Shown: positions 25,429 to 29,500 of the stretch, in pieces
Layout of the letters: every line of letters starts with the position of its first letter
How positions within the stretch are numbered: position 1 is the first letter of the stretch
NCBI GenBank assembly: GCA_016209535.1
Contig: JACQVW010000765.1
Location: 1 to 36,285, forward strand
Reading direction: 5' to 3'
DNA: 36,285 nt
Source: Planctomycetota bacterium
GTDB lineage: Bacteria > Planctomycetota > UBA8108 > SXIK01
The notes under the pieces: model-generated
What the model was told of the DNA's origin: nothing
Databases searched by the model: none
What the model saw: the letters and a program-made list of their open reading frames with translations, nothing else
Translations under genes and position numbers: made by a program

Positions 25429-25574
25429 CTACTCCCGCGGCACCTCATTGACCGTATACGCCGCCTCGTCGTGGACGAGGGGCTCTCCCGCCGCGCTGCG
25501 GGCGCCCGCGGCGCGGAGGCGGTAGATGCGGCCCGGGACGAGGGGGCCCAGGTCCAGGTCCACGCGGCGGCCCT
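25429..25574 (-). pseudogene. Duplicate of the C-terminal end of the giant cytochrome gene
   Basis: GRRVDLDLGPLVPGRIYRLRAAGARSAAGEPLVHDEAAYTVNEVPRE* versus GLRVDLDLGALVPGRVYRLRAAGARSAAGEPLVHDEAAYTVNEVPGG* at 26576-26721; roughly 90% nucleotide identity by eye, same orientation. Confidence 0.92.
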
Positions 25575-25645
25575 GTTCACTTCTCCCTCGCGCACCCCGG
25601 ATCCTGACTCCTCGGCCTCTATGGGAACAACTCGGGATGCCGCTT

Positions 25646-26044
25646 CTAGTGGCGGCGAGCCTCGACCTGGCGCAGGTGGTTCAACGCCAGCCTCTCCACG
25701 GAGGCTCGACCGATCGGAGTCAGACCCTCGATCCGCAACCCGTCCCTCGACCAGCGGAAGTGGCGCGACCACCGGTGCCGCCGCGGGTGAAAGAGCGGGA
25801 CGACTCGCTTCGTGCCAGGGTCCTGGTAGGACTGGAAGTCCTGCTTGTGGAACTGGCAAGCGTAGCAACACAGGGCGAGGTTGCTCGGATCCGACGGGCC
25901 GCCTTGGCTTTCTGGTTTGATGTGATCCAAAGTGAAGCGATGAGGGAACAAGGCCTCCGGCGCCCGGCAGTACTCGCAGCGGAAGCGCGCCCGCGCAGCG
26001 ACCTCAGGGTACCACTTGCGGACGTCGAGCTTCCTCGCGGGCAT
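25646..26044 (-). CDS. HNH endonuclease
   Basis: RFRCEYCRAPEALFPHRFTLDHIKPESQGGPSDPSNLALCCYACQFHKQDF...LFHPRRHRWSRHFRW: HNH core with CxxC pairs. Confidence 0.93.
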   Translation of the reverse strand: MPARKLDVRKWYPEVAARARFRCEYCRAPEALFPHRFTLDHIKPESQGGPSDPSNLALCCYACQFHKQDFQSYQDPGTKRVVPLFHPRRHRWSRHFRWSRDGLRIEGLTPIGRASVERLALNHLRQVEARRH

Positions 26045-26422
26045 TCAACCGCGGTGCCGCAGTGAACGGTTTCCCCGAGACCGCCACGCCAAGCGTGGAG
26101 AGGGCTGTCCAGGCGCTGCCGGCTCTCGCCTCGAAAGCTTCCGAACGATCCCCCTATCGGCGAGCTCGCCGGCTCGCCGGAAGTCCTCGTCGATCAGGCG
26201 CTCGAGCTTCTCTCTCTCTCTCTCCGTCAAGCCACCACCGCGCTGCTTCTCGAGCAAGCGTTCGATCTCACCCGTCCGGGCCTCATCGGCCGCGATGCCG
26301 CTCGAAGAGGACAAGCAGCGCACGACGTGCTCCAGGAGCGACACCAGCGACAGACCGCGCTGGGCCGCGCTTCTTGCGAGCTTGCCGTAGAGTCGATCGG
26401 GGACGTTAAGGGCTTGAGCCAT
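26045..26422 (-). CDS. RHH/antitoxin-like small protein paired with the HNH nuclease
   Basis: MAQALNVPDRLYGKLARSAAQRGLSLVSLLEHVV...LTEREREKLERLIDEDFRRAGELADRG. Stop abuts the HNH ATG (TGAATG). Confidence 0.7.
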   Translation of the reverse strand: MAQALNVPDRLYGKLARSAAQRGLSLVSLLEHVVRCLSSSSGIAADEARTGEIERLLEKQRGGGLTEREREKLERLIDEDFRRAGELADRGIVRKLSRREPAAPGQPSPRLAWRSRGNRSLRHRG

Positions 26423-26548
26423 GCTCACGAGTCTACGCCCTCGAGCGCGCGAAGCAACCCATCACGCGCTTCGTACCTCTTGGATTCGGTGACGACCGCT
26501 GGCGGAGCACAGCCTCCTGAGCAGTCGGCCGGCAACGACGACGGAAAC

Positions 26549-26571
26549 GAGGAGAGGAGCAGACTCTCCTC
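26549..26571 (-). terminator. Hairpin after the giant cytochrome gene
   Basis: GAGGAGAG-GAGCAGA-CTCTCCTC perfect 8-bp stem, 4 nt beyond the stop at 26576. Confidence 0.5.
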
Positions 26572-26575
26572 CTCG

Positions 26576-29500
26576 CTACCCCCCCGGCACCTCGTTGACC
26601 GTGTACGCAGCCTCGTCGTGGACGAGCGGCTCACCCGCCGCGCTGCGGGCTCCTGCGGCGCGGAGGCGGTACACGCGGCCCGGGACGAGGGCGCCGAGGT
26701 CCAGGTCCACGCGGAGGCCATCGGGGCTGGCGCGCGCCTCGAGGACCCGCACCGTGGTCCTCTCGAGCTCGGGCGAGCCGTATTCCGGCCCGTAAGAGTA
26801 GCGGTAGTGGTGAATGGCGTAGGAGGCGGGGTCGCCCGATGATCTCGGGTCGGCCGGCCGCGTGAAGACGAGCTCGAAGCCGCGAGGCCTCGCGTGCATC
26901 TCCCGGACCTCGAAGGGCGTCTCGCCCGTGAAGTCGATGCGGTACAGCGCGCCGCGGTCGGGCTGGCCCATCCACGCGGGCTCGGTGATGCTCCCGACGT
27001 AGAGGCACCCCTCGGGGCCGAAGGCGAGGACGAGCGGCCCGAGGAGGCCCGCGCCCCAGAAGGGGAAGCAGGCGCCCTGGGTCTCGCCGTTCACGTCCTC
27101 GATCTGCGCCCGGATGATCGCGCCGCCCGTGTAGAGCTCGGCGAGGAAGATCTGGCCCGAGAAGGGGCCGAACTTGCCGCCGGTTGCGTCCAGCGCGAGG
27201 CCATTGATGGACCGCGCCCAGGCGTAGGGGACCCACACCGACGTCCCGCCGGCGGGCTTGTCGCGGTGCTGGAGCTGCTCTGGGTTCGGGAAGCCGTAGA
27301 AGCGGCCGGGCCGCACGCGGCAGAGGCGGTTCGCGGCGACCCACTCGCCCTGGTTGTCGGTGATGCAGAGCCCGCCGTCGGGGCCGAGGCACCAGCCCAC
27401 GGGGTTCCGGAAGCCGAAGGCCACGTCCGCGACGGAGCCGTCGGGGCGCAGGCGGAGCGCGGAGCCGGCGCCGCGCTGCGTCCGGTTCGCCCAGGGCGCA
27501 AGGCCGAAGAGGAAGGAGCCGTCGGGCTCGGGCACGAGGCCGTAGGCCCAGTCGTAGCTCGAGACGAGGCCCTGGGGCCACGTGAAGACGCGCTCGACGA
27601 CCTCGGCGCGGCCATCGCCGTCCGGGTCGCGGAGGCGCGTGATGTTCCTCCGGTGGAGGACGTAGAGGTCGTCGCCGCGGTGCACCATGCCGTAGGGCTC
27701 CTGGAAGGGCCCCGCGTGCTCGGCGAGGCGCGCCTCCCCGCCGGGCCCGGAGGCATCCACGCGGTGGACGAGGCCCATCTTCATGCTGGCGACGAAGAGC
27801 TTGCCGTCCGAGGGCCGCGCCGCGAGGGCGCAGGGCATGACGAGCCCCGCCGCCGGGTCGCGCAGCTCGACCGCGCGGTAGCCGGGCCGGGCCGCGGGCG
27901 GCTCGCGGCGCTCCTCGGGCGAGATCGGCGACGGCGCGGGCGCGGGCTCGTCGCGCCGCGCCGCGGCGGGCTTCGCGAGCGCGTCGCGCCCGTAGCGGAG
28001 CTCGACCGCCGCCTGCGCCTGGCCCAGCGCGAGAGCGACCGTCGTGATCGACGCGGCGCCGCTCGCGTCGTGCGCCACGCGCTCCTGGCCCGGCGCGGGC
28101 CGCCCCCAGCGCGCAGGGTCGGCGCCCGCCGGGAGCGCCGCGAGCACGTGGACCTGAGCGCACGGCGGCAAGCCGCTCCAGCGCACGCGCCGCAGCAGCG
28201 TGCGGGCCGGGCCCGAGTCCTCGAGGCGCAGCTCCTCGGTCGCCTCGACCCTCGCGTCCCCGACCGCGAGCCGGGTCCGGATGCGGACGCCGTCCTCGAG
28301 CACCTCGAAGCCGAGGAACCGGTGCCGCGCGACGAGCGCGTCGGCGTTCCGCGGCGGCTCGAGGGGCCGCGGCTCGCCGAAGCCGAAGGGGATGGCGGGC
28401 CCGAAGGGCGCGGCGACGGGCTCCCCCTCGAGGAGCCACGTCCGCCAGCCCGAGTCGTCGCGGAGGAGTGCTGCCTCCTCCCACCACGAGCCGAGCGCGA
28501 GCCGCTCGACGTCGTAGACGAGCACGTCGCGCGAGGGGAGCTGCACGACGAGCGCCTCGACGGCGCCGCTGCCGGGTACGCGGAGCGGGAGCTGCGACGC
28601 CCTCGGGCGTTCGCCCGGTCGAGGGGGTGGCAGCGGCGACGGAGGGCGCATGCGCGGCGGCTTCCCTGCCGGGGCGCCGGCGAGGTAGCGCCAGAGCGCC
28701 TCCTTTTCTCGCTCCGGGTCCCCGCCGAGCTGCGAGCGCGCCGCGCCGTGGGGAAAGAAGGCCGGCATGGGCGTCGCGGGAAGGAAGCGCCGTGGCTCCT
28801 CGAGCCACCGGTCGAACCATTCGCGGCGCACGCGGCGCGCGATCGCCGTGAGGTCGGGCCCCGCCGAGCCGGGCTCGGCATGGAAGTCCGAGGACCGCTT
28901 CCAGGCGTGGCAGGCGATGCACGCGTAGCCGCCGTGGCCCGCGAGCGCGCGGCCCTCCTCGGCAAGGGCGGCGTCCTCGCCGGCCGCAGGCGCCCCGGGC
29001 GCCGCGGGTACGCCGGGCGCACCGGGTACACCAGGCGGCCTGGCCTCCGCCGGCGCCTCGACCGGCAGGTCGACGAGCTCCCCATCGCCCTCGAGGAGCG
29101 CGCGGACGGCCTCTCGACCGTGCGGGCCGTAAGCCGGCATGCGGTAGGTGTACCAGTGCGGGCGCACGCCGGAGACGCCGCGCTCGGCGGCCTCGAGGAG
29201 GTACGCGGGCTGGAACCGGCTCCCGGCGCCCGCCAGGGACGGCACCCGCAGGTAGGGGAGCCGCGCCGGGAACATCTCGTGGTGCACGCGGAGGACGACC
29301 CCTTCGAGGGGCGACGCGTCGCCGGGAGCACGCGGGTGGCAGCGGATGCAGCCGAGGCGGCGCAGCGTGAGCTGTCCCGTCTGGAACGGCGAGTCGCGCC
29401 AGCCTTCGCGGGCCGCCGCGAGGAAGGCCTCGAGCGCGGCCCGCTCGGCGCTCGTGAGCGCGAAGCGCGGTAGCGTGCGGCCCGCGAGGCAGCCCCTCGC

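What the first reader, a model, noticed from the sequence alone, without database searches (positions are those of the whole stretch)
25429..26722. RHH-like/HNH nuclease pair bracketed by direct copies of the 3' end of the giant cytochrome gene
About 146 bp (46 codons plus stop) of the gene's 3' end are repeated in the same orientation about 1.15 kb downstream, at roughly 90% identity. Between the copies sit only the abutting RHH-like and HNH genes and short spacers. The cytochrome gene keeps a complete end. This resembles an insertion that regenerates the target gene's 3' end, as some integrative elements do at tRNA genes, but with a protein-coding target and an HNH nuclease as cargo. The ~10% divergence would mean the event is old, or that the donor brought its own version of the end. 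No described element of this type is known to me.
Basis: partly seen in the sequence, partly recalled or inferred. Interest (0 to 1): 0.8.

Follow-up and report, generated by a model that had tools for sequence, protein, structure and literature searches.

The report
Imported nuclease module duplicating gene's end
A small foreign nuclease gene pair sits behind a cytochrome gene whose last 144 bases occur twice, apparently because the incoming DNA brought its own version of the gene's end and left the old end behind; the same genome carries toxin-antitoxin and nuclease modules inserted this way at many other sites.

Summary
The repeat is real: 144 bp, 90% identical, same strand, 47 codons plus stop, with only two abutting small genes and two spacers between the copies. 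It is not a private element. Six of 13 other HNH loci in this genome are bracketed by unrelated direct repeats of this kind. So are HigBA (also in this window), ParDE, MNT-HEPN, PIN/Phd, Uma2, DUF433 and AAA-PD-(D/E)XK modules: roughly 150 sites per genome by extrapolation. None of 19 HNH loci in nine other genomes has it. The bracketed DNA is lower in G+C than its flanks at 20 of 20 curated sites, and shows no terminal inverted repeats or shared edge motif.

Key result: the detached copy fits the protein family as well as the gene's own end does, which neutral decay does not give (simulated P about 0.002 or less). The two ends are therefore functional versions that diverged before being joined. 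At three other sites the copies are mosaic, part identical and part 27-38% diverged. Best explanation: one-sided, homology-anchored import of a module together with the donor's gene end, resembling 'insertion with long target duplication' and homology-facilitated illegitimate recombination. An integrase-type element is not supported. No uninserted close relative was available.

The parts
26576..30850 (-). Target gene X: large multi-heme-type cytochrome c / dehydrogenase-like protein, about 1424 aa, complete 3' end
   Evidence: ORF and codon-usage call; Pfam Cytochrome_CBB3/Cytochrom_C; 377 homologs
26576..26719 (-). Copy A: last 47 codons plus TAG of gene X as it now stands
26429..26575 (-). 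Spacer between the stop codon of X and the partner gene; starts with a GAGGAG/CTCCTC hairpin-like stretch
   Evidence: sequence
26045..26428 (-). Partner gene, 127 aa; RHH-like N-terminus by eye, C-terminal helical motif shared weakly with partners of other HNH genes
   Evidence: no Pfam/NCBIfam/PADLOC hit; no homolog found among 5.8 billion proteins
25646..26044 (-). HNH nuclease, 132 aa, abutting the partner gene; zinc cysteines, DH and N of the HNH motif present
   Evidence: PF01844 E 1e-10; alignments A1, A3; AlphaFold model pLDDT 95
25573..25645 (-). Spacer between the HNH stop codon and copy B; contains the non-homologous joint to B
   Evidence: sequence, sharp edge
25429..25572 (-). Copy B: detached 3' end of X (47 codons plus TAG), read as the displaced resident end
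24931..25395 (+). Convergent neighbour Y: PIN-domain protein, its stop codon 33 bp from copy B
   Evidence: PF01850 E 9e-17, gene call
32227..32313 (.). Second case in the window: left copy of an 87-bp, 87% direct repeat, just upstream of a minus-strand gene ending its 5' side at 32212
33475..33561 (.). Second case in the window: right copy of the 87-bp repeat, upstream of the plus-strand gene starting near 33657
32467..33075 (+). HigB (32467-32745) and HigA (32758-33075) toxin-antitoxin pair bracketed by the 87-bp repeat
   Evidence: PF05015 E 8e-17, HTH_3 E 2e-8

Best explanation
The partner-HNH pair is a small foreign module that arrived on a DNA fragment which also carried a relative's version of the end of the cytochrome gene. 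That homologous piece anchored the fragment in the resident gene by ordinary recombination, while the other end of the fragment was joined without homology to a point 144 bp before the resident stop codon. The gene thereby received a complete donor end (A), and the resident end (B) was pushed about 1.1 kb downstream as a fragment. The same kind of event has happened at many sites of this genome with other small toxin-antitoxin-like and nuclease modules, so the route is supplied by the cell and the HNH pair is a passenger kept because such modules are selfish or protective. Shown here: the repeat, sharp edges, foreign composition, recurrence, B being a functional-type end, mosaic repeats elsewhere. 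Inferred: which copy is the donor's, the order of joining, how the DNA entered, and why the modules persist.
For: (1) Against a profile of 119 homologs, detached copy B scores as well as gene end A (72.2 vs 69.8). Fourteen neutral changes never reach that score in 20,000 simulations; if only 4 of the 14 fell on B, P is 0.0022. Four of B's five differing residues match the nearest homolog. So A and B diverged under selection before being joined. (2) Differences spread evenly over all 144 bp with no indels, and the homology stops at the stop codon on one side and at the non-homologous joint on the other. (3) Mosaic copies at other sites, part identical and part 27-38% diverged: L209, L124 and L211 12596, P 0.0005 each; combined P 3.5e-5 over 20 loci. 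Expected if a crossover between divergent versions fell inside the repeat. (4) The bracketed DNA has lower G+C than its flanks at 20/20 curated sites, mean difference -0.064 vs a minimum of -0.020 in 2,000 sets of random segments; coding-type repeats left out of the set show no difference. (5) Recurrence: 6 of 13 other HNH loci in this genome (P 3e-7 against the share of the genome inside such brackets), and unrelated modules. (6) HNH paralogs here are only 37-47% identical, so they came in separately, not by copying within the genome. (7) The nearest genome-collection ortholog of X (65%) has no module downstream.
Against: No close relative with an uninserted site was available, so donor and recipient are not identified. 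Only this locus gives clear functional-version evidence: the same test at L202 is inconclusive, and pooled codon positions over other loci (third position 57 of 120) are intermediate, as if some fragments have decayed. At L214, L153 and L060 the copy is an internal piece of an intact gene and needs an extra deletion step. The one-sided model does not itself explain why this genome has so many. DprA was not detected, only ComEC, and the assembly is 80% complete. The set of bracketed sites was chosen by me after removing coding repeats.
Confidence: 0.55

Rival explanations
1. True target duplication: the module was inserted by a staggered or sister-chromatid break event that copied 40-250 bp of target, the two copies were identical at birth and have diverged since.
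For: Gives direct repeats in one orientation, of variable length, at promoters, gene ends and intergenic DNA, as seen. Pooled codon positions (third position 57/120) and the nonsynonymous-rich L153 pair fit a decaying fragment; identities run from 76 to 99%.
Against: Copy B in the window is not decayed. Mosaic pairs cannot come from even decay. The repeat ends at the stop codon in the window and at L211 18353.
Confidence: 0.22
2. Homing: the HNH nuclease cuts the resident gene end, and repair copies the donor's cleavage-resistant version of the end together with the nuclease, leaving the old end behind.
For: Intact HNH motif and a confident HNH fold; A and B differ mostly at third codon positions (9 of 14); the joint lies 10-152 bp past the HNH gene at 7 loci.
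Against: The same bracket surrounds modules without DNA nucleases such as HigBA, ParDE and MNT-HEPN; no common motif at the edges; 19 HNH loci elsewhere lack it.
Confidence: 0.06
3. Decayed tandem paralog: two cytochrome genes stood side by side, the second lost all but its last 144 bp, and the module moved in.
For: Two functional-type ends at one locus.
Against: Other copies of the gene family in this genome are at most 36% identical while A and B encode 42 of 47 identical residues; unrelated genes and promoters show the same pattern at other sites.
Confidence: 0.06
4. Assembly artefact: strain versions with and without the module were strung together in a metagenome assembly.
For: The genome is a draft of 906 contigs, 80% complete; A and B look like two strain versions.
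Against: No N in 926 kb sampled, so these are contigs and not scaffolds. The joints carry no shared sequence an assembler could join on. Divergence up to 24% with indels and decayed fragments does not fit one population. Complete-genome precedents exist (Helicobacter pylori).
Confidence: 0.08

Closest known systems
Insertion with long target duplication of restriction-modification genes in Helicobacter pylori (Nobusato et al. 2000, as described in PMC1643837 and PMC3031569)
   Same: Small selfish modules bracketed by long, variable-length direct repeats of the target, no transposase of their own
   Different: Here the cargo is HNH, toxin-antitoxin and other nuclease modules in a probable planctomycete; the copies at this locus were already divergent functional versions; no uninserted strain to compare
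Homology-facilitated illegitimate recombination (PMC3240628) and its proposed role in Vibrio cholerae T6SS effector-immunity arrays (PMC5361080)
   Same: One homologous anchor, one non-homologous joint; the displaced 3' end of the old gene is shifted behind the new module
   Different: Not tied to secreted effectors; many unrelated target genes; inferred from one genome without recipient strains
ParDE-like module fenced by 152-bp direct repeats behind the MaOC1 caspase gene of Microcystis aeruginosa (PMC7935541)
   Same: Two-gene module between long direct repeats just downstream of a gene
   Different: There the repeats are identical, noncoding and hold an inverted repeat
Septu PtuB / retron Ec78 PtuB, EcoKMcrA and Gme HNH nucleases
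   Same: HNH fold and motif (weak profile and fold matches)
   Different: Much shorter, no PtuA ATPase partner next to it, scores far below family cut-offs

Membership tests
tRNA-type integrative element | Site-specific recombinase in the element | tested here: not met
   Only the partner and HNH ORFs lie between the copies; no integrase domain
tRNA-type integrative element | Identical att core shared by copies of the element | tested here: not met
   Copies 90% identical with even differences; repeats of paralogous loci unrelated
Transposon or IS | Terminal inverted repeats or a shared end motif | tested here: not met
   Edge similarity equal to mismatched pairs over 20 loci
Insertion with long target duplication | Selfish-type module between long direct repeats of the target | tested here: met
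Insertion with long target duplication | Uninserted allele with a single copy in a close relative | tested here: inconclusive
   Nearest ortholog in the genome collection 65% identical, no module downstream; too distant to align the site
Insertion with long target duplication | Two copies identical at birth | tested here: not met
   B is a functional-type end, not a decayed copy; mosaic pairs elsewhere
Homology-facilitated illegitimate recombination | Non-homologous joint at one side | tested here: met
   Sharp inner edge of B, no similarity beyond
Homology-facilitated illegitimate recombination | Homologous anchor from a divergent donor | tested here: met
   Functional-type divergence of A and B; inferred crossover inside the repeat at L209, L124, L211
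Homology-facilitated illegitimate recombination | Route for DNA uptake | tested here: inconclusive
   ComEC present, DprA not found in the 80% complete assembly
Ku-dependent end joining as the joining step | Ku protein encoded in the genome | tested here: not met
   No Ku match in the 80% complete assembly; absence is therefore provisional
Homing endonuclease | Cleaves the allele lacking the element | not testable with these tools
   Needs purified protein
Homing endonuclease | The bracket is specific to the nuclease | tested here: not met
   Same bracket around HigBA, ParDE, MNT-HEPN, Uma2 and others
Type II toxin-antitoxin pair | Two abutting small genes, putative antitoxin first | tested here: met
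Type II toxin-antitoxin pair | Partner belongs to a known antitoxin family | tested here: not met
   No Pfam, NCBIfam or PADLOC hit, no homologs
Septu (PtuAB) | PtuA ATPase next to PtuB and family-level PtuB score | tested here: not met
   No ATPase gene adjacent; NCBIfam PtuB gave no reported match to this HNH and 15.8 of 150 bits to a paralog; PADLOC PtuB models E 4.5e-5 at best

The most novel reading that the evidence does not exclude
This lineage has an undescribed trans-acting route that captures small foreign defence-type modules together with a piece of the donor's flanking gene or promoter and sets them beside resident genes without breaking them, at something like 150 places in the genome.
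Probability: 0.12. Interest if true: 0.8.

Novelty: new variant of a known kind. Interest (0 to 1): 0.52.

Why it matters
How toxin-antitoxin and small nuclease modules spread between chromosomes without transposases or integrases is a long-standing gap. A genome with many bracketed modules of different ages gives a natural series in which donor versions, crossover points and decay of the displaced ends can be read directly. It would link two ideas usually treated apart, insertion with long target duplication and one-sided homologous import, and supplies a simple signature (low-G+C module between sharp-edged, partly mosaic direct repeats of 40-250 bp) that can be searched in other genomes.

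Tried and rejected
Chance repeat: rejected (E 4e-51). Repeat as a common genomic element: only two full copies in the assembly. Transposon ends: none. Ku end joining: no Ku found, provisional. Guide-like role of copy B as in IscB/TnpB: considered because the HNH resembles IscB weakly, dropped because non-nuclease modules have the same bracket. The profile test at L202 (5091-5223) was inconclusive because few homologs aligned. Furuta et al. 2010 was not held. In one search I used 7 of 13 for the HNH count; one search corrects this to 6 of 13 others (7 of 14 with the window).

Full report
OBSERVATION. The repeat is exactly as claimed apart from small numbers. Positions 25429-25572 and 26576-26719 match over 144 bp at 90.3% with 14 substitutions and no indel, in the same orientation, 1147 bp apart. 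The second copy is the last 47 codons and the stop of a minus-strand gene of about 1424 aa with cytochrome c domains. Between the copies are a 147-bp spacer, a 127-aa ORF, an abutting 132-aa HNH ORF and a 73-bp spacer. The alignment ends sharply on both sides, and the assembly holds no third full copy.

RECURRENCE. The HNH family has about 14 members in this genome at 37-47% identity to the window's protein and is patchy in the phylum (19 of 395 genomes). In the own genome 6 of 13 other HNH loci (L054, L057, L058, L059, L060, L062) have a direct repeat of 44-167 bp at 78-96%, one copy upstream of the pair and the other starting 10-152 bp after the HNH gene; the repeat sequences are unrelated between loci. 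None of 19 loci from nine other genomes shows it (Fisher P 0.002). In G005, L065 has a 291-bp repeat around a larger stretch.

NOT HNH-SPECIFIC. About 0.93 Mb of the genome was sampled. In 662 kb of contigs picked without regard to modules I kept 11 sharp direct repeats (16.6 per Mb, roughly 150 per genome by extrapolation). Seven hold a Pfam-recognised module or module part: AAA-PD-(D/E)XK, DUF433, DUF6922, DUF4058, nucleotidyltransferase-HEPN, PIN/Phd, Uma2; two more look like VapBC or Phd modules by eye; two are unclear. ParDE is bracketed in L124. The window has a second case: HigBA at 32467-33075 between 87-bp copies lying on the promoter sides of two divergent genes. Targets are gene ends, gene starts, divergent promoters and intergenic DNA. 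Direct repeats far outnumber inverted ones (28 to 2 and 22 to 1 before curation).

FOREIGN CARGO. At 20 of 20 curated sites the bracketed DNA has lower G+C than its flanks (window 0.655 vs 0.714; mean difference -0.064; random segments never below -0.020 in 2,000 sets). Repeats left out as coding repeats show no such difference. The curated set was chosen by me, so this is support and not a blind test. There are no terminal inverted repeats and no shared edge motif.

WHICH KIND OF EVENT. If the two copies were identical at birth, the detached one should decay without regard to codons. In the window it has not: against a profile of 119 homologs B scores 72.2 and A 69.8. Neutral change from either copy reaches the other's score in 0 of 20,000 simulations with all 14 changes, and with P 0.0022 if only 4 of the 14 fell on B. 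At the five differing residues B matches the nearest homolog at four (R, P, I, E), while A's residues are common in other homologs. Two functional ends that had diverged earlier were therefore brought together. Elsewhere the picture is mixed: pooled differences fall on codon positions 29, 34 and 57, between neutral and constrained expectations, and L153 looks decayed. At three other loci the copies are mosaic, with one part identical or nearly so and the rest 27-38% diverged (L209, L124, L211 at 12596; P 0.0005 each; combined P 3.5e-5 over 20 loci). Even decay cannot give this; a crossover between divergent versions inside the repeat, or partial gene conversion, can.

MECHANISM. The simplest account is a one-sided import. 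A donor fragment carrying the donor's gene end and the module recombines in the gene body and is joined without homology at its other end to a point upstream of the resident end. The gene gets a full donor end, and the resident end is displaced behind the module. [quoted passage not shown] pylori (PMC1643837, PMC3031569). Direction (which copy is the donor's), route of entry and the joining enzyme are inferred; Ku and DprA were not detected and ComEC was. At L214, L153 and L060 the neighbouring gene is intact and the copy is internal, which needs a later deletion in the redundant copy.

THE MODULE. The HNH protein has the expected zinc cysteines and HNH residues, a confident model (pLDDT 95) and weak fold similarity to EcoKMcrA, a Gme HNH nickase and PtuB of Septu and retron Ec78; it meets no known family cut-off beyond Pfam HNH. 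The partner has no detectable homolog by itself and only a weak motif shared with other partners. Toxin-antitoxin or defence is the likely function by anatomy, untested.

VERDICT. It is a new variant of a known kind, remarkable for scale within one genome and for evidence that the two ends were divergent before they were joined.

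Noticed in passing
window 32227-33561: HigBA toxin-antitoxin pair bracketed by 87-bp, 87% direct repeats on the promoter sides of two divergent genes.
   Followed up: yes
window 24156-25395: HigA-like HTH gene (minus) and PIN gene (plus) next to the HNH module; 24498-24642 resembles the HigB region 32599-32743 in inverted orientation (74%), so the window holds several toxin-antitoxin-type modules.
   Followed up: partly
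L065 (G005:C121) 3937-4227 and 6287-6577: 291-bp repeat, 91%, covering a promoter and signal-peptide start of a dockerin-like secreted protein, with an HNH gene in between; identical first part, diverged second part.
   Followed up: partly
L209 (G000:C326) 1-165 and 850-1014: Repeat identical for 99 bp and then 27% diverged; the contig begins at the repeat.
   Followed up: partly
L054 5115-5473: Fragment of the neighbouring membrane-protein gene sits directly in front of an RHH-type small gene behind the HNH pair: two modules in a row.
   Followed up: no
G000 whole genome: 49 Uma2 and 41 PIN matches in a 9.1-Mb draft: very rich in small nuclease modules.
   Followed up: no
window 26045-26428: The partner ORF finds no homolog among 5.8 billion proteins although its HNH neighbour has relatives at 60-68% identity; it may be fast-evolving or frame-damaged.
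   Followed up: partly
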